DNA of 64,000 nt, from contig CP102405.1 in the NCBI GenBank assembly GCA_024628785.1, positions 248,001 to 312,000 on the forward strand, in the 5' to 3' direction. The first letter of the stretch is position 1. Each line of letters opens with the position of its first letter. Shown here in pieces: positions 1,555-41,933 of the stretch. This DNA is from Fusobacteria bacterium ZRK30 (GTDB taxonomy: Bacteria > Fusobacteriota > Fusobacteriia > Fusobacteriales > Fusobacteriaceae). The translations under genes were made by a program, and so were the position numbers. The notes below the pieces were generated by a model. The model was not told the origin of the DNA. It did no database searches and saw nothing but the letters and a program-made list of their open reading frames with translations.

Positions 1555-3309
1555 CTACTCACCCATAAATAATTTGATATCATCCTCGACACTTCCGATT
1601 CCTGCTATTCCAAAGTTTTTAACTAATACATCTGCAACTGTTGGAGATAAGAATCCTGGTAATGTTGGTCCTAAGTGGATATTCTTCACACCTAATGATA
1701 ATAGAGCTAATAATACAATTACTGCTTTTTGCTCATACCATGCAATATTATATGCAATCGGCAATTCATTTACATCTTCTAACTCAAACACTTCCTTTAA
1801 TTTAAGAGCTATAAGAGCTAAAGAATAAGAGTCATTGCATTGTCCTGCATCTAATACTCTAGGAATCCCACCGATATCCCCTAATGCTAATTTGTTGTAT
1901 CTATATTTTGCACAACCTGCTGTCAAGATCACTGTATCCTTTGGTAAATTATCTGCAAACTTTGTATAATAATCTCTTGATTTCATCCTTCCGTCACAAC
2001 CTGCCATTACGAAGAACTTTTTGATTGCGCCACTCTTAACTGCATCTACCACTTTATCAGCTAGTGCAAATACCTGCTCGTGGGCAAATCCACCTACGAT
2101 AGCTCCCTCTTCAATCTGAGTAGGTGCCTTACAAGTTTTCGCCATCTCTATAACTTTAGAGAAGTTTTTTGTTCCATCTGCATTTACCTGTATTCTGCCC
2201 CATCCCGGGTATCCTGCGGCATTTGTAGTAAACACCTTACCATCATAAGATGCTCCTACCTTAGGAGGTACTATACAGTTAGTCGTAAAGATGATAGGTC
2301 CGTTGAAAGTTTCAAACTCTTCTTTTTGTTTCCACCATGAATTTCCATAGTTACCCACCAGATGCTTGAATTTTTTTAGTTTTGGATAATAATGAGTCGG
2401 CAGCATCTCTGAATGGGTATAGACATCTACACCTGTTCCTTCTGTCTGCTCCAATAATTGAACCATGTCGTTAAGATCATGTCCAGAGACTAATATTCCC
2501 GGATTAGTCCCAACTCCTATATTAACATTTGTTATTTCAGGATTTCCAAATGTTTCAGTATTTGCTTTATCCAATAGTGCCATTGCTTCTACACCAAATT
2601 TACCTGTTTCTAATACCAATGCCACCAAATCATCTACCGACAGAGTATCATCTAATGTAGATGCCAATGCCTTTTCTATAAACATTACTATCTCTTTATT
2701 TTTATACCCTAAATTATTTGCATGTTCATAGTAAGCAGCCATTCCTTTCAGTCCGTATATTGTAAGTTCTCTCAAGGATCTTACATCTTCATTTTCAGTA
2801 GATAGTACCCCTATACTCAGAGCTTTTTTCTGCATCTCATCCATGGTATCTACTGTAAATGTAAGTACATCATGATCAGCTAATCTCTTAGGTACACAAC
2901 CTCCCTCTTTTAAACCCTCTCTGATTTCAAGTCCTTTTTTTATCTCTACTGCAATGGCATCATCATCAAAATTAGAATTCGTAACTGTGATAAATAATGA
3001 ATTAGTAATAAAATAATCTACTCCCTTGCAGATCTCACAGTCATCTCTATGCTCTAATGGTTGCCCCTCCCTCAAGATTGATATTCCCTTTAAGGTATAG
3101 ATAAGTAAATCCTGTAAATTAGACGTTTCAGGTTGTTTTCCACAGACACCTGCTACTGTACAGCCTGTGTTCTTTGCAGTTTCCTGACATTGATAACAAA
3201 ACATCGGTACTTTTTCATCTTTTACAAGGATGTGTTTTACTTCCTCTTCCACTTCCTTGGCCAACTCCTTTTCCTTTGCAAAAAATCTTTTTAATCTATC
3301 CCATGCCAT
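1555..3309 (-). CDS. hcp: Hydroxylamine reductase / hybrid-cluster protein, copy 1
   Basis: Hcp carries a cubane cluster and a hybrid Fe-S-O cluster. The family reduces hydroxylamine and, in enterobacteria, nitric oxide, so it serves nitrosative stress defence in anaerobes. The N-terminal cluster motif is CX2CX8CX5C (starts CYQC near residue 38), the spacing of the [4Fe-4S] class. Hybrid-cluster ligands are visible in [20 protein letters not shown] and GQCNDSYSL. The protein is 584 residues, longer than usual because 35 charged residues (opening [10 protein letters not shown]) precede the conserved MFCYQC. The start at 3309 has a good GGAGGGG site and no ribosome site precedes the internal Met. 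A close paralogue lies at 4158-5876. It probably shares a transcript with the SHOCT gene upstream. Confidence 0.95.
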
Positions 3310-4157: not shown

Positions 4158-5876
4158 TTACTCACCCATGAATAATTTGATATCATCTTCTACAGATCCG
4201 ATTCCTGCTATCCCAAAGTTTTCAACTAATACGTTTACTACTGCCGGAGATAAGAATCCTGGTAATGTTGGTCCTAAGTGAATATTCTTTACACCTAGGT
4301 GTAATAGAGCTAATAATACGATTACTGCTTTTTGCTCGTACCATGCAATGTTATATGCAATCGGTAATTCATTTACATCGTTTAATTCAAATACTTCTTT
4401 TAATTTAAGAGCTATTAAAGCTAAAGAGTAAGAGTCATTACATTGTCCTGCATCTAATACTCTAGGGATTCCACCGATATCTCCTAAATCTAATTTGTTA
4501 TATCTATATTTTGCACAACCTGCCGTTAATATTACTGTATCACTCGGTAACTTATCTGCAAATTCTGTATAATAATCTCTTGATTTCATCCTTCCGTCAC
4601 AACCTGCCATTACGAAGAACTTCTTAATTGCTCCAGTTTTAACTGCATCTACTACTTTATCAGCTAATGCGAATACTTGCTCATGAGCGAATCCACCTAC
4701 GATAGTTCCCTCTTCAATTTGAGTTGGTGCTTCACAAGTTTTTGCCATTTCAATGATTTCAGAGAAATCTTTATTTCCATTCTCATCTTCTTTGATGCTA
4801 ACCCATCCTGGGTATCCAGCTGCATTTGTAGTGAATACTTTACCTTCATATGATGCTCCTGCTTTTGGAGGAACTATACAGTTTGTTGTGAATAAGATCG
4901 GTCCGTTAAATGATTCGAACTCTTCTTTTTGCTTCCACCATGCGTTTCCGTAGTTTCCTACTAAGTGATCATATTTTTTTAACTCAGGGTAGTAATGAGC
5001 CGGTAACATCTCTGAATGAGTATAGATATCTACTCCAGTTCCCTTTGTTTGCTCTAATAATTGAACTATATCGTTAAGATCATGTCCAGAAATTAAGATT
5101 CCAGGATTTGATTTTGTCCCGATGTTTACTTCAGTTAATTCAGGATTTCCGAATTTCCCTGTATTTGCACTGTCTAATAATGCCATTACGTCTACACCGT
5201 ATTTTCCAGTTTCTAATACTAATGCTACTAATTCGTCTAATCCTAAAGTATCATCTAATGTAGATACTAAAGCTTTTTCTATAAACATTACGATCTCTTG
5301 CTTCTTATATCCTAAGTTTACTGAATGCTCGTAGTATGCTGCCATTCCTTTTAATCCATATATAGTAAGTTCTCTAAGTGATCTGATATTTTCATCTTCA
5401 GTTGCTAATACTCCTACTGATAATGATTTAGCCTGCATCTCTTCCATAGTTTCTACGGAAAACGTTAATGCATCATGATTTTCTAATCTTTTAGGAGTTC
5501 TTCCCTTTTTAATGAAGTTAGCTTTTAATTTTTCTCTTAATGCTAAACCTTCTGTAATTTGAGCTGCGATAGCCTCGTCATCAAAGTTAGCATTTGTTAT
5601 AGTAGTAAATAATGCATTTGTTATATAGTAATCAATTCCTTCACAACAACCACAAGATTTTCTTGTCTCTAAATCAATTCCCTCTCTTAAAATAGCTATT
5701 GATTTAGCTGTATATATTAATAAATCCTGCAAATTAGAAGTTTCCGGCTTCTTCCCACAGACACCTGCTATTGTACATCCAGTTCCTTTTGCTGTTTCTT
5801 GACATTGGTAACAAAACATTGACATATTATCTCCTCCATTTTTTTTATTAAATAATTTTTTTAATTTATTAAACAT
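4158..5876 (-). CDS. hcp: Hydroxylamine reductase / hybrid-cluster protein, copy 2
   Basis: Second Hcp, highly similar to the copy at 1555-3309 along its whole length, including the CX2CX8CX5C cluster motif and the hybrid-cluster ligands. Two starts are possible. The ATG at 5876 has GAGGGAG five bases upstream and adds a basic peptide (MFNKLKKLF...). The ATG at 5825, giving MSMFCYQC, has an even better GGAGGAG five bases upstream and matches the usual Hcp start. Both may be used. An extended -10 box (TGATATAAT on the minus strand, about 5909-5917) lies upstream. The gene sits between two terminators, so it is probably transcribed alone. Two hcp genes in one locus point to a real load of hydroxylamine or NO. 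Confidence 0.95.
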
Positions 5877-22210: not shown

Positions 22211-22289
22211 TTTTTACTTCCTCCTAAAATATTTGATTTCAAATGTTCGTTTAGATCTATCGATCTAAAGGGTTATATTTTAAAAGAAA

Positions 22290-22458
22290 ATAGCCACTAG
22301 AAGATTTTTGTAATAACCGTCACCGATTATTTTTGTTCCTTCTTTAGGTTGTGACAACCTCTAGGGTACCCGCCGATTTTCGATTTTCCCTAGCCCTCGT
22401 CAACTCCTGGTTAAAAACCCTATTAAAGGTTGAGAACTCATTCAGAAGTTCAGGCGCT
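22290..22458 (-). ncRNA. glmS self-cleaving ribozyme/riboswitch
   Basis: The minus-strand leader of glmS carries the known ribozyme core in order: AGCGCCTGAAC at the 5' end, GTTGACGAGG, AATCGAAAATCGGCGGGTAC, then the P3/P4 region. In the known class, cleavage occurs between A and G of AGCGCC, here between 22458 and 22457. Glucosamine 6-phosphate is the cofactor, and cut mRNA is degraded, giving product feedback on glmS. The 3' border is approximate because the P4/P4.1 end was not folded. Confidence 0.95.
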
Positions 22459-22499
22459 TTTATATTTTTTTACTTTCTTTTAATTTCCCTATAACCTAT

Positions 22500-32893: not shown

Positions 32894-32917
32894 ATCTTAC
32901 TCCTTTAAAAACCCTAC

Positions 32918-33634
32918 TTATACCTTTGCGATATACTCGAATGGTAATGGTACAATTTTACCTGGTGTTTGTATTTCCACTAAGTTTTCTAAAGTTGCCT
33001 TTAAAATCTCTAGTTGCATCTTATGATCATTTGGTGCTCCTGCATTGGCTCCCATTGGTACATTTGGTGCTACTGCTCTTGGTGTTCCAGTTTGTCTTAC
33101 AACTGGTGGTAATGCTGCTACAATTATTGTAGGAATCCCCGATTCCTCAATCGCTCTCTGTACTAATACAGCAGAACGGTGACAAGTCCCTCAGCCAGCA
33201 GTTAATACTACAGCGTCTACTCCGTCTTCTTTAAATCTTGCAGCGATGGCAGGACCAGTTTCATTTTTAAATTTCTCTTGGTTTCCACCTCCACCCATGA
33301 ATCCAGCGTGAACATTAGCCACACCTTTGATGTACCCATCTTTTACTAACTCATTTAATGGATCCACTGGGAACATACAGTTAACGTCTTTGTTTACGTC
33401 TCCGTTGTCATACCCACCATGAGATACCATCATATCAGATGTAGGTGCATCTCCTGGAATAAATCTATATGTGAAATCTCCAGCAAAATTAAATCTTTCT
33501 TGTGATTTTAAATGTACTCCTGCTGCAGTTGCTAAACCTATTTTCATTTCATTTAAAGGCTTAGTTACTGGCGTCCAAACAGACTTAGGAGTGATCGGTA
33601 CAAATATTTCAGATTGCATACCTTTTATTGCCAT
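32918..33634 (-). CDS. prdB: D-proline reductase subunit PrdB, selenoprotein (in-frame TGA)
   Basis: 238 residues when TGA at 33191-33193 is read as selenocysteine at residue 148 (context LTAG-U-GTCHRSAV). The frame continues cleanly for 90 codons to a TAA at 32918, ending FEYIAKV, and the downstream part (IPTIIVAALPPVVRQTGTPRAV) is typical PrdB. Selenocysteine attacks D-proline bound to the PrdA pyruvoyl group and opens the ring to 5-aminovalerate. A bulged hairpin begins 15 bases after the TGA. GAGGAGGAAAAT precedes the ATG. Without recoding the gene would look broken. Confidence 0.95.
33155..33175 (-). promoter_or_regulatory. Candidate SECIS hairpin of prdB
   Basis: In the mRNA: TCT, a bulged G, CTGTA, loop TTAG, TACAG, AGA. 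It starts 15 bases and its loop lies about 24-27 bases after the TGA, within the distance used by bacterial SelB elements. Confidence 0.6.
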
Positions 33635-37384: not shown

Positions 37385-37421
37385 GTCAAAAAAACAAGGG
37401 ATCACAGCTTGTGATCCCTTG
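37385..37421 (-). terminator. Terminator of the helicase-xseB-ispA operon
   Basis: A perfect 12-bp stem (CAAGGGATCACA) with a 3-nt loop, then T8 on the minus strand, two bases after the ispA stop. Confidence 0.93.
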
Positions 37422-37423
37422 CA

Positions 37424-38296
37424 CTATTTTCTTCTATTTCCTATATAATCAGCCAATTCCATATGCCATTTTGCCTCGTCTCCAAAAACATCAAACATTA
37501 TTTGCTTGGCTTTTTCTACTTTTTCAACCAGGATTTCCTTAGTTTTCTCCATCCCAAAAATTGAAGGATAGGTAGATTTCAATAGTTCCCTGTCGCTTCC
37601 CACTGGTTTTCCAATCTCCTCAAAAGTTCCCTCGATATCCAAAATATCATCCTTTATCTGGAAGGCTAACCCAATTAATTCTGCATATTTTTTTAAAACT
37701 TCCCTTTTCTCAGGTTCTGCCCCTGCAATTATACAAGCGCATTCTATGGGCAGCATCAATAATTTCCCTGTTTTATGGGTATGAATATATTGCAGTGTGG
37801 GAAGATCTATCTCTTTCTCCTCAGATTCTATATCCACCATCTGTCCGCCAATCATCCCATTTACCCCTGCATAATCAGAAGTTAGTTTAACCATCTCCAC
37901 TACTTTAGACGGTTCAAGATCTTCTCTCGTTATCAAATTAAAGGCATGGGTTAGGAGTGCATCTCCTATTAATATAGCTTCTGCCTCTCCAAACTTTTTA
38001 TGAGTTGAAAATTTTCCCCTTCGATAATCATCGTTGTCTAAAGCCGGCAGATCATCGTGAACCAATGAATAAGAATGGATCATCTCTATAGCTACACTCA
38101 TAGGCAGCCCATTTTTCTCCTGAACTCCTAATAGATCCAATGTCATCAAAAGTAAGATAGGTCTCAGTCTCTTTCCACCATTCAATACAGAATATTTCAT
38201 CCCATCAGCTATAACTTTTGGATATTTTATCTCATTTAGGTATTCTTCAATAACCAGATCTACCAGTGTCCTTCTTTCCTTTAAGTATTCCTTCAT
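37424..38296 (-). CDS. ispA: Polyprenyl (farnesyl/geranylgeranyl) diphosphate synthase
   Basis: About 290 residues. Condenses isopentenyl diphosphate with allylic diphosphates for quinone and undecaprenyl lipids. First Asp-rich motif DDLPALDNDDYRRG near residue 80, second QIKDDILD near 215, plus GGKRLRP. The start at 38296 (MKEYLKERR) is six bases after AGGAGG; a directly preceding ATG at 38299 is also possible. The ribosome site overlaps the xseB stop codon, so translation is coupled. Confidence 0.93.
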   Translation of the reverse strand: MKEYLKERRTLVDLVIEEYLNEIKYPKVIADGMKYSVLNGGKRLRPILLLMTLDLLGVQEKNGLPMSVAIEMIHSYSLVHDDLPALDNDDYRRGKFSTHKKFGEAEAILIGDALLTHAFNLITREDLEPSKVVEMVKLTSDYAGVNGMIGGQMVDIESEEKEIDLPTLQYIHTHKTGKLLMLPIECACIIAGAEPEKREVLKKYAELIGLAFQIKDDILDIEGTFEEIGKPVGSDRELLKSTYPSIFGMEKTKEILVEKVEKAKQIMFDVFGDEAKWHMELADYIGNRRK

Positions 38297-38306
38297 CATT
38301 CCCCTC

Positions 38307-38522
38307 CTACTCAAAATCTTCTACTATTATTTCACCATTTTTCTCCATTACCTTCTTTACTTTTCCCTCTGCTTTTTCCAGTATAGCACCTGATTTAGTC
38401 AACAATTTCATTGCTTTTTCATATTCTTTCATGGATTCATCCAAATCCATCCCGCTTTCTAATTTTGATATTATCTCATCTATCTCACTTATATTTTCTT
38501 CAAAAGTATTTGCTTTTGCCAT
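38307..38522 (-). CDS. xseB: Exodeoxyribonuclease VII small subunit
   Basis: 71 residues, helical, with the family pattern FEENISEIDEIISKLESGMDLDESMKEYEKAMKL (split here over residues 7-41). XseB joins XseA in a nuclease that trims single-stranded DNA. The xseA gene is not in the window. It starts three bases after the helicase stop, and its stop overlaps the ispA ribosome site, giving a tight three-gene unit. xseB-ispA pairing is common in bacteria; the helicase in front is unusual. Confidence 0.92.
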   Translation of the reverse strand: MAKANTFEENISEIDEIISKLESGMDLDESMKEYEKAMKLLTKSGAILEKAEGKVKKVMEKNGEIIVEDFE

Positions 38523-38525
38523 CTT

Positions 38526-41500
38526 CTATGCCTCCTCTTCTACTATTTTCCTGTATTCCTTAAAATCATATCTTTTCTCTATTTTTTTTAACAGATCCAG
38601 CTTTTTTTCTATATCCCGTCTATTTTTTATACGAGTTATATCTTTCTCTATTCTTTCAATATAATTATATCCTAAATTATACATTAAAACCAGTTTTGAC
38701 AGTTCAATACTACCTTTTAGAGATAAAATCTCAAGATCTTGATCTTTTAATATATAACCTTTTTCTAAAAATAACTTCATCCCTTCCACATAATTATTTT
38801 GTATTATATTCATCATAGGAGTAGTTGTCCCTGCTGCATAATCCAGATCTGCACCTTTCTCTATCAACATCTTCATTATCTCATAGTCTTTTGACAGTCC
38901 TGCTGATATAAGGGGTGTGGTTCCTTCTACTTCCACATCTAACTTTACATCTTTATCCAGCAATGCTTTAATCATAGGTTTATTTCTATAGACCACCCCA
39001 TAATAAATAGGGTTATGCAGTTCAATATCTGTCCCTTTATCTATTAAATATTTAAATATATCAAACTCATCTTCTGCTATAGAGTAGATTAACGGAGTAA
39101 TTTTCAACTTGTTTTTTTCATCTGAGACCTCTCCTAATTCAGCACCACTACCTACCAATAATTTTACCATCTCCAGGTCTTTATTCTTTATGGCTATGAT
39201 TAGTGGAGTCAGACCATCTTCAGATTTGACCTCTATATCTCCTCCTAACTGAATGATTTTTTTCATATTTTTTACCTTCTTGTGTTCACATGCAAGGAGT
39301 AACAAATCATCTAATTTAGGTTTCTTCTTACACTTAGATATATATTTTTCTACAATATCTCCGTCATCTAAAATGGATATAATGGTTTTTATATTCAATT
39401 GACTGGAATAATTTTCCATCAAATAGTTGATTCCATTTTTTCCTCCATCTATATGGTAGAGTTTGATCAATAGTTTGGTAGGAGATTTTACACTATGTTT
39501 TTTTGAATCTTTACTTTTAGACTTAAATCTATCCTTTAATATTACCAAGATATCCCCTATATTTTTTTGCTGTTTCCTCATTATATATTTTTTATCTAAA
39601 TTTTCAAACTCAACTAAGGAAAATTTCTTAGAATTTATTTTTTTATCCGATAAAACTCTCACTTCATTAGCTATATCCAAGGCTGCATCATTCTTTTCCA
39701 ACTCTTGCTTCAGCCTTTTTATTAGTGGGGTTACCTCTGATTTAATTGCGTATTCAAAACTTTTTTCTAATTCCCCCTCCATCTCAAATAATTGTGAGAG
39801 TTTTTCATAATTTTCACTTTTTTCATAATATTTTTTTGCTGTTTCATAATATTTTTTTTCAAATGCGTAATCACCAATCTTATCCGTTACTACATATTTT
39901 TCCAGACAACGAGATAATGAATCATCGTTATTTACAATATACTCTATAGTTTTCTCATCATTATGCTCATTAAAGAATTCATCGGCTGCCAATTCATCTT
40001 CAGCTTTCTTTATATATTTTTTAGCTCCTGCTTTTTTAAATGCAGCAATTGCTTCTGAAAATAATTTTTGACTCAAAAATTCTTTTCCCTCTTTTAAAAA
40101 ATCTAATTCTCCACTTTTTAAAGTAAAATCTCTCTTTCCTTCAACCGTCATAGGAATCAAATAGCTTTTTAACTCCTTTAACAGGCAGACCTCTTCATTT
40201 TCTTCCATAAGGAGAAGTCTTTTTCTAGCACGAGTTAAGCCTACATACAGCAGATTAAAATAATATCTGTAGAGCTGATTTGTTTTAGCCCTCCCAGAAA
40301 AAATAATCTCCCAATATTTTTTTAACTCTGTTGCAAAGTTATAGAGCACAACCGAATCAAATTCCAGCCCTTTTATATCCTGGACTGTCAGTATTTTATT
40401 TGCTATTTTGGGTAATTCCATCCTCAGAGCTTCTTTAATTTGATTAGTTGGAACTAAGATTATAGCTGTATTTTCCTCCAACTTTTTCAAAAAGTCGTTG
40501 TCTTTTTTATAGATATATATGTCTTCTCCTTCTAATATCGAAGCTTCCTTATAATCTTCTCCTAACTTTCCGATATATTCTCCTCTGAGATCACTCAGTT
40601 TATTAGCCAGATCCACTATTTTTTTTTGGCTTCTGTAATTTTTCCCCAGCTGTTTCTCTATATATTTTCCCTTGTAAAACAATGACTTCACCCTGGAAAA
40701 ACTAAAATAAGTTGGGTTTATTATCTGATGAATATCTCCAGACAGCAATAAATTTTCTCCGTTTTTTACCAATTTTTTCAGCATATATATCTCAATCTCA
40801 GTTAAGTCCTGTACCTCATCACAGATTATACAATCAAAAATTTCTTTCCCCCTCAACGTCACCCTTCGTGCCAGATCATTTTCATCCATATAGCCTCTTT
40901 CAGTGAGCCAGCTCTGGTAAATAAGGGTGATTTTGTATATCTCTTTTCTTATCTCTTCCCTATAGACTGTATATTTCTTATTCAGCACCAAATAATCTTC
41001 CCGGGGTATAAGTTCTTGTTTTAAGTCTCTATCCCAATTCCCTGCCCCCTTGGCTCCCATACTTCCCTTTATTGTTCCCCTGATTTCCTGGTATAACTCC
41101 AAATGTTCAATACCTTTAGGAATACTTGGATTATATTCATAGATAAATTTTTCAAAGATTTTCAATCCCACGGGTTTTTCCTTCAGTTGTTTTTCATACA
41201 ACTCCTCCAAAGAGTAAAATTCAACCATCTTTTCACAACTAGGATCTCTAAACTTTTCATACATTTCATGGGCTTTTTCCTTTAAAGGCTGGGTAAATGT
41301 TATATATCCCACCTTTAAATCCTGCCGTTCCTCCAATTCCAGAGTTTTCCTGATGGCCACTGTAGTTTTACCACTTCCAGCACTTCCCTTTAAAAACAGT
41401 GGAAATTCACTGTTTAAAATTTCATACTGCTCATCATTTAGATAATAATATGTGTATTCATCCTCATTTTTAATAAATTCCAAAAGATTTTCATCAGAAG

Positions 41501-41933
41501 TGATCTCATATACTATCTTTGAATTTATTTTATTGTATATAATATCTAAATCTTCCTCTAACCTTTCACTTGAGCTTTCATAATTCTTTTCGATCTCTAA
41601 TTTTTCGACCTTTAAACTTTCAATTTTATTTTGACGCATTCCGCTTTTTACTGCCAGATCATGAGTTGAAAACAACAGCAGTACCAATACTTTTTCTCCA
41701 TATCCTGCCCGTTTAATATCTTTAAATTCAAATAATACCCTGTCGCCGCTATTTACCCTGAACTCATATAAATTTTCCCTGAGTTTCTTAACCCAAAATC
41801 CTTTGGGTATCTCAAATATCTTTTTTTTGTTTTTCGATATTTCCCTATAAAAATACTGTATCCTCTCTTTAACCTGCTTTATCTTTTCCTTAGGTACATT
41901 CTTAAAAAAATCCCCAGTTATTAAAAATCTCAT
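38526..41933 (-). CDS. RelE-like / UvrD-type helicase / TPR / ankyrin fusion protein
   Basis: 1135 residues, cytoplasmic. Residues 1-95 resemble the RelE/ParE toxin fold (WVKKLRENLYEFRV, DRVLFEFKD, then LLLFSTHDLA). Residues about 170-600 form an SF1 UvrD-type helicase: Walker A GSAGSGKTT with Lys189, Walker B CDEVQDL with Asp372/Glu373, GKNYRSQ, VQDIKGLEFDSVVL near 520 and YVGLTRARKRLLL near 565. Residues about 610-770 look like TPR-type helices (AIAAFKKAGAKKYIKKAE). Ankyrin repeats run about 890-1060 (GLTPLIIAIKNKDLEMVKLL and later copies). No antitoxin gene is next to it. It precedes xseB by three bases. Role unknown; DNA repair control or defence are possibilities. Confidence 0.85.
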   Translation of the reverse strand: MRFLITGDFFKNVPKEKIKQVKERIQYFYREISKNKKKIFEIPKGFWVKKLRENLYEFRVNSGDRVLFEFKDIKRAGYGEKVLVLLLFSTHDLAVKSGMRQNKIESLKVEKLEIEKNYESSSERLEEDLDIIYNKINSKIVYEITSDENLLEFIKNEDEYTYYYLNDEQYEILNSEFPLFLKGSAGSGKTTVAIRKTLELEERQDLKVGYITFTQPLKEKAHEMYEKFRDPSCEKMVEFYSLEELYEKQLKEKPVGLKIFEKFIYEYNPSIPKGIEHLELYQEIRGTIKGSMGAKGAGNWDRDLKQELIPREDYLVLNKKYTVYREEIRKEIYKITLIYQSWLTERGYMDENDLARRVTLRGKEIFDCIICDEVQDLTEIEIYMLKKLVKNGENLLLSGDIHQIINPTYFSFSRVKSLFYKGKYIEKQLGKNYRSQKKIVDLANKLSDLRGEYIGKLGEDYKEASILEGEDIYIYKKDNDFLKKLEENTAIILVPTNQIKEALRMELPKIANKILTVQDIKGLEFDSVVLYNFATELKKYWEIIFSGRAKTNQLYRYYFNLLYVGLTRARKRLLLMEENEEVCLLKELKSYLIPMTVEGKRDFTLKSGELDFLKEGKEFLSQKLFSEAIAAFKKAGAKKYIKKAEDELAADEFFNEHNDEKTIEYIVNNDDSLSRCLEKYVVTDKIGDYAFEKKYYETAKKYYEKSENYEKLSQLFEMEGELEKSFEYAIKSEVTPLIKRLKQELEKNDAALDIANEVRVLSDKKINSKKFSLVEFENLDKKYIMRKQQKNIGDILVILKDRFKSKSKDSKKHSVKSPTKLLIKLYHIDGGKNGINYLMENYSSQLNIKTIISILDDGDIVEKYISKCKKKPKLDDLLLLACEHKKVKNMKKIIQLGGDIEVKSEDGLTPLIIAIKNKDLEMVKLLVGSGAELGEVSDEKNKLKITPLIYSIAEDEFDIFKYLIDKGTDIELHNPIYYGVVYRNKPMIKALLDKDVKLDVEVEGTTPLISAGLSKDYEIMKMLIEKGADLDYAAGTTTPMMNIIQNNYVEGMKLFLEKGYILKDQDLEILSLKGSIELSKLVLMYNLGYNYIERIEKDITRIKNRRDIEKKLDLLKKIEKRYDFKEYRKIVEEEA

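What the first reader, a model, noticed from the sequence alone, without database searches (positions are those of the whole stretch)
38526..41933. RelE-like domain fused to a UvrD-type helicase with TPR and ankyrin repeats
A single 1135-residue protein joins a RelE/ParE-like N terminus, an intact SF1 helicase (all main motifs), a TPR-like region and several ankyrin repeats. No antitoxin is adjacent. It starts the transcript of xseB (exonuclease VII) and ispA with a three-base gap. Coupling to a DNA-trimming nuclease suggests DNA damage or foreign-DNA response; the ankyrin tail could sense a partner. Ankyrin repeats on a bacterial helicase are unusual.
Basis: partly seen in the sequence, partly recalled or inferred. 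Interest (0 to 1): 0.7.

Follow-up and report, generated by a model that had tools for sequence, protein, structure and literature searches.

The report
RelE-type RNase domain fused to helicase
A single bacterial protein joins a YoeB/RelE-like RNA-cutting toxin domain with most of its active-site residues kept, an intact ATP-driven helicase and a protein-binding TPR/ankyrin tail, with no antitoxin gene beside it; the same toxin-helicase core occurs in several bacterial phyla and I found no description of it.

Summary
ORF 38526-41933 (-) in a Psychrilyobacter genome encodes 1135 aa: a RelE-superfamily domain (1-100), an SF1 helicase with all motifs (161-600), a TPR-like region, and six or seven ankyrin repeats. 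It lies 3 bp before xseB-ispA, with no antitoxin gene. The RelE call is supported by profile tests in both directions. The family-conserved K49/K50, R59, R65 and H91 align with YoeB E46 (Lys here), R59, R65 and H83, so the domain may still cut RNA. The core recurs in Fusobacteriota, Bacillota, Deinococcota, Alpha- and Gammaproteobacteria and Cyanobacteriota. Repeats vary in kind and side. Within the genus the RelE and helicase parts are under strong purifying selection; the ankyrin block diverges fast and looks exchanged between two orthologues. The xseB link is Psychrilyobacter-only, an insertion between rsmD and xseB; xseA is about 650 kb away. The gene is near-universal in 4 of 29 fusobacterial genera, in housekeeping neighbourhoods: neither phylum-wide nor a typical defence-island gene. 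Best reading: a self-contained RelE-type RNase held and released in cis by a helicase motor and a variable sensor tail, Schlafen-like by convergence. Activity and trigger are inferred. Both structure models were too weak to use.

The parts
38526..41933 (-). whole gene, 1135 aa RelE-UvrD-TPR-ANK protein
   Evidence: orthologues of equal length in the genus
41634..41933 (-). RelE/YoeB-superfamily domain, residues 1-100
41784..41789 (-). K49-K50; K49 sits at the YoeB Glu46 (general base) column
   Evidence: YoeB roles from PMC3814384
41757..41759 (-). R59, aligned with YoeB Arg59
41739..41741 (-). R65, aligned with YoeB Arg65 (transition-state stabilisation)
41661..41663 (-). H91, aligned with YoeB His83 (general acid)
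40134..41453 (-). SF1 (UvrD-like) helicase, residues 161-600, all motifs intact
39324..40133 (-). helical TPR/clathrin-like region, residues 601-870
   Evidence: weak Pfam match 669-749; clear TPRs in the Paraclostridium relative; helical in a low-confidence model
38664..39314 (-). ankyrin repeats, about six or seven, residues 874-1090
   Evidence: Pfam Ank_2 E=1e-23; pLDDT mostly 60-88 with helix pairs
38307..38522 (-). xseB, 3 bp downstream; same unit but not part of the conserved system
37424..38314 (-). ispA-type polyprenyl synthase, overlaps xseB
37394..37422 (-). terminator-like hairpin after ispA

Best explanation
The protein is a one-piece, antitoxin-less RelE/YoeB-type ribonuclease module carried by an SF1 helicase. 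Shown by sequence: a RelE-superfamily domain with family-conserved K50, R59, R65 and H91; an intact helicase; a variable TPR/ANK tail; the same RelE-helicase core in several phyla with the repeat part changed or moved. Inferred: the helicase binds and moves on nucleic acid exposed by stress (single-stranded DNA, R-loops or mRNA on stalled ribosomes), the TPR/ANK tail senses or docks a protein partner, and their conformational state exposes or hides the RNase domain so that it cuts ribosome-bound mRNA (or another RNA) only then. This would do in cis what an antitoxin does in trans, much as Schlafen proteins combine an RNase and an SF1 helicase in one chain. The adjacency to xseB is incidental.
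For: RelE membership in both search directions. Active-site mapping: R65 in 21 of 21 members, R59 and H91 in 20 of 21, K50 in 21 of 21; Lys at the YoeB Glu46 column, as in the Gp49 toxins; YoeB residue roles from PMC3814384. Helicase motifs intact across the family. RelE domain Ka/Ks 0.017-0.057 and helicase 0.037-0.053, like xseB/ispA/rsmD, against ANK 0.115-0.162. Core in Fusobacteriota, Bacillota, Deinococcota, Pseudomonadota and Cyanobacteriota. ANK at the N-terminal end in a paralogue, L059. ANK block 75% nt identity against 89% for the body between window and L042, p=3e-16. Long coexistence with the host without a neighbouring antitoxin.
Against: No activity is shown. YoeB's Glu46 and Tyr84 are not kept (K49 and D92). 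Polymorphobacter has D at the H91 column, with a His two residues on, and Lys at the R59 column. The RelE fold could be a non-catalytic RNA- or DNA-binding unit. Structure models of the RelE and helicase parts are low confidence (pLDDT about 44). The trigger and the substrate are unknown.
Confidence: 0.42

Rival explanations
1. The RelE-like domain is catalytically dead and serves as a nucleic-acid- or ribosome-binding adaptor for a helicase with an ordinary RNA or DNA maintenance role (R-loop or ribosome rescue, protein displacement).
For: Stable genus-wide retention beside housekeeping genes and strong purifying selection on RelE and helicase alike. The general base Glu and the catalytic Tyr of YoeB are replaced. 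No antitoxin is needed if there is no toxicity.
Against: R59, R65 and H91 stay almost fixed across phyla at 26-45% overall identity, beyond what a bare fold needs. E. coli RelE uses basic residues in place of the Glu (PMC7180214).
Confidence: 0.33
2. Anti-phage or anti-plasmid abortive-infection effector: the helicase detects foreign nucleic acid (as a nuclease-helicase pair does) and the RelE domain shuts down translation.
For: Helicase scores against Gabija GajB and RT-associated helicase models. On cyanobacterial plasmids a neighbour matches a NERD-UvrD candidate (Euhalothece) and others match NsnA/NsnB (Crinalium). Many relatives are on plasmids. The ANK block is fast-evolving and apparently exchanged.
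Against: In Fusobacteriaceae it is found in 28 of 29 genomes of four genera, at positions shared by related genomes and among housekeeping genes, not in defence islands. The GajB matches reflect the shared UvrD fold. No phage or viral counterpart.
Confidence: 0.2
3. DNA-damage factor working with exonuclease VII.
For: 3-bp gap to xseB conserved in the genus.
Against: Only Psychrilyobacter has this adjacency; relatives show queA-rsmD-xseB-ispA without it; xseA is about 650 kb away.
Confidence: 0.05

Closest known systems
RelE/YoeB/HigB (BECR-fold) toxins of type II TA modules
   Same: Same domain superfamily; conserved R59, R65 and H91 at YoeB catalytic positions
   Different: Fused to a helicase and repeats; no antitoxin; Lys in place of YoeB Glu46. 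Gerdes 2025 (PMC11980606) left out multidomain BECR proteins that lack an antitoxin and does not mention helicases
Schlafen proteins (SLFN11/13)
   Same: An endoribonuclease domain and an SF1-type helicase domain in one chain (SLFN11), linking a stress signal to translation control (PMC9482658, PMC5862951)
   Different: Unrelated RNase fold; eukaryotic; full-length SLFN11 does not bind or hydrolyse ATP, whereas the motifs here look intact. Analogy, not homology
Gabija GajA-GajB
   Same: UvrD-like protein working with a nuclease
   Different: Two proteins; GajA is a DNA endonuclease; GajB lacks helicase activity in PMC10681800
UvrD/Rep/PcrA helicases
   Same: SF1 motor motifs
   Different: Only 46.8 bits to the UvrD model in the genome search against 315 for the best UvrD-family protein of the same genome; extra N and C domains

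Membership tests
RelE/YoeB BECR superfamily | statistical sequence similarity to known members | tested here: met
   PDB RelE3 E=2.7e-4; HigB 2e-5 for one member; reverse search, 20 of 21 N-domains above all 1720 decoys
RelE/YoeB BECR superfamily | BECR fold | tested here: inconclusive
   Model pLDDT 44; the best Foldseek hits are YoeB, HigB and RelJ but none is significant
RelE/YoeB BECR superfamily | catalytic residues | tested here: inconclusive
   R59, R65 and H91 kept; Lys at the YoeB general-base column, as in Gp49 toxins; YoeB Tyr84 not kept. Activity untested
Type II toxin-antitoxin module | cognate antitoxin gene adjacent | tested here: not met
   Upstream is a divergent gene or an empty gap, downstream xseB
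SF1 UvrD-like helicase | Q, I, II, III, IV, V and VI motifs | tested here: met
SF1 UvrD-like helicase | ATP-dependent translocation or unwinding | not testable with these tools
   needs biochemistry
Gabija | GajA OLD-type nuclease partner gene | tested here: not met
   No such neighbour among the window genes read or the fusobacterial neighbours scanned; GajB scores are at general SF1 level
Schlafen | Schlafen core RNase domain | tested here: not met
   The N-domain is RelE-type; only a weak SLFN-g3_helicase match, below cut-off
Ankyrin repeat protein | tandem ankyrin repeats above Pfam cut-off | tested here: met
   Ank_2 84 bits against a cut-off of 27.3

The most novel reading that the evidence does not exclude
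A widespread, undescribed class of single-chain conflict or stress effectors: a catalytically active RelE-type mRNase controlled in cis by an SF1 helicase motor and a swappable TPR/ankyrin sensor, a bacterial functional counterpart of Schlafen proteins that needs no antitoxin.
Probability: 0.35. Interest if true: 0.85.

Novelty: new variant of a known kind. Interest (0 to 1): 0.6.

Why it matters
RelE toxins are thought of as small proteins held by antitoxins. A conserved form with most of its active-site residues kept, tethered to a motor and a sensor and carried stably in several genera with no neighbouring antitoxin, would be a different way to control a toxin and would give a bacterial parallel to Schlafen proteins. 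It also names one residue set (R59, R65, H91, K189) that makes the idea directly testable.

Tried and rejected
Exonuclease VII coupling: rejected by synteny and xseA location. Phylum-wide housekeeping: rejected, 4 of 29 genera. Gabija membership: the PADLOC GajB hits are shared helicase signal. Phage origin: no match in phages, only marginal helicase-motif matches in viral contigs. AlphaFold models: the alignment could hold only the window and the search for related loci relatives, so both models came out at pLDDT 44, useful only for the ankyrin part; the Foldseek list for the N-domain (YoeB, HigB, RelJ on top, E about 0.5 or worse) is consistent but not evidence on its own. First extraction of toxin sequences ignored strand and gave false sequences; redone. 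A comparison with a partial orthologue (G060) was mis-framed and discarded. Campylobacterota: 1 of 249 genomes, with two in-frame stops. A TRANK1-type eukaryotic comparison (UvrD-like helicase with TPR/ankyrin, from memory) could not be tested: no eukaryotic sequences here and no paper found.

Full report
What is there. The reported ORF is real: 38526-41933 (-), 1135 aa, in a Psychrilyobacter genome (genus name from the record title of a 91%-identical orthologue). Pfam gives UvrD-helicase, UvrD_C_2, ankyrin repeats and a weak clathrin/TPR match. Every SF1 motif is intact and conserved through the family.

Is residues 1-100 RelE? Single-sequence Pfam scans of the window domain are silent, so I tested it with profiles. 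An alignment of 18 family N-domains finds RelE3 in the PDB at E=2.7e-4, with YoeB next but not significant; single members match Pfam HigB (2e-5), Gp49 and YoeB weakly. I then collected 36 YoeB, Gp49 and HigB toxins from fusobacterial genomes. The toxin profile ranks 20 of 21 N-domains above all 1720 decoy ORFs, with the window domain at E=3e-5; in the other direction 27 toxins rank above the first decoy. Alignment puts family-conserved K49/K50, R59, R65 and H91 at YoeB Glu46, Arg59, Arg65 and His83, residues with known catalytic roles (PMC3814384). The Glu is Lys here, as in Gp49 toxins; E. coli RelE also relies on basic residues (PMC7180214). YoeB Tyr84 is not kept. So the domain is RelE-superfamily by sequence, and it keeps most but not all of an active site. 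Structure prediction did not help.

Distribution. In the phylum the helicase-bearing family is present in 28 of 98 genomes, which are 28 of the 29 genomes of four genera of one family (Psychrilyobacter, Cetobacterium and two more), and absent from the other 25 genera; the remaining matches of that search are ankyrin-only. Two copies are interrupted: in G009 near the C terminus and in G032 inside the helicase (real or assembly error). Outside the phylum, relatives lie on plasmids of Paraclostridium, Deinococcus, Polymorphobacter, Piscirickettsia, Crinalium, Euhalothece and on large Shigella/E. coli plasmids. All those I read carry the RelE-like N terminus, and the C-terminal repeats differ: TPR in Paraclostridium, ankyrin in Deinococcus and Polymorphobacter, weak TPR in Crinalium, none detected in Euhalothece. 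A second Psychrilyobacter protein (L059:6380-10174) has a long ankyrin array before the RelE domain instead of after the helicase. The RelE-helicase core is therefore the constant unit and the repeats are a mobile accessory. A tree groups the fusobacterial members, Psychrilyobacter beside the other three genera; long branches make deeper order unsure.

Context. In the genus the gene keeps a 3-bp gap to xseB. In relatives without it there, the order is queA-rsmD-xseB-ispA (gene names from recognition of the protein sequences), and one Psychrilyobacter shows queA-rsmD-gene-xseB-ispA (L044). So the gene was most likely inserted into an older unit. xseA is about 650 kb away. In Cetobacterium and a related genus it instead lies just downstream of a 605-613 aa protein with a sigma-70 region 4 match. 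Neighbours in a third genus include carAB.

Selection. Between Psychrilyobacter orthologues, Ka/Ks is 0.017-0.057 for the RelE part and 0.037-0.053 for the helicase, like xseB, ispA and rsmD, but 0.115-0.162 for the ankyrins. The window and its nearest orthologue L042 share 89% of nucleotides in the body and 90% in the tail but 75% in residues 876-1050 (p=3e-16); synonymous divergence rises too, which suggests exchange of the block, not only fast protein change. L042 seems the changed one.

Mechanism. The anatomy fits an RNase held in cis: helicase as motor or sensor of nucleic acid, tail as partner sensor, RelE as effector. This is inference. A dead RelE domain used as an adaptor is the main rival. 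The defence reading stays open, weakened by stable genus-wide retention and housekeeping surroundings, helped by plasmid carriage and by defence-type neighbours in cyanobacteria.

Known work. Gerdes 2025 surveyed multidomain RelE/ParE proteins but set aside many for which no antitoxin could be identified, and its text does not mention helicases, UvrD or ankyrin. Searches of the held library found no description of this architecture; most subscription papers and preprints are not covered.

Noticed in passing
window 32900-33634 (-): prdB of the proline reductase operon is split by an in-frame TGA in LTAG-U-GTC, the expected selenocysteine; ORF callers cut it at 147 aa.
   Followed up: yes
window 1555-3309 and 4158-5876 (-): Two closely similar hybrid-cluster protein (hydroxylamine reductase type) genes in near tandem (name from recall of the family, not searched).
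   Followed up: no
L059:6380-10174: Paralogue with ankyrins N-terminal to the RelE-helicase core, between an ABC transporter and coaE-pgpA-cinA genes, found in one Psychrilyobacter genome only.
   Followed up: partly
L048:6058-7899 and L052:10810-12645: 605-613 aa protein with a sigma-70 region 4 match lies just upstream of the helicase gene in Cetobacterium and a related genus; function unknown.
   Followed up: partly
plasmid search: A relative with the whole RelE-helicase span (about 47% identity to the Deinococcus one) is found on about 100 Shigella and 13 E. coli large plasmids; not fetched.
   Followed up: no
L046 (G009) and L058 (G032): The gene appears interrupted in two genomes, near the C terminus and inside the helicase.
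   Followed up: no
window 22288-22469 (-): glmS ribozyme just upstream of glmS.
   Followed up: yes
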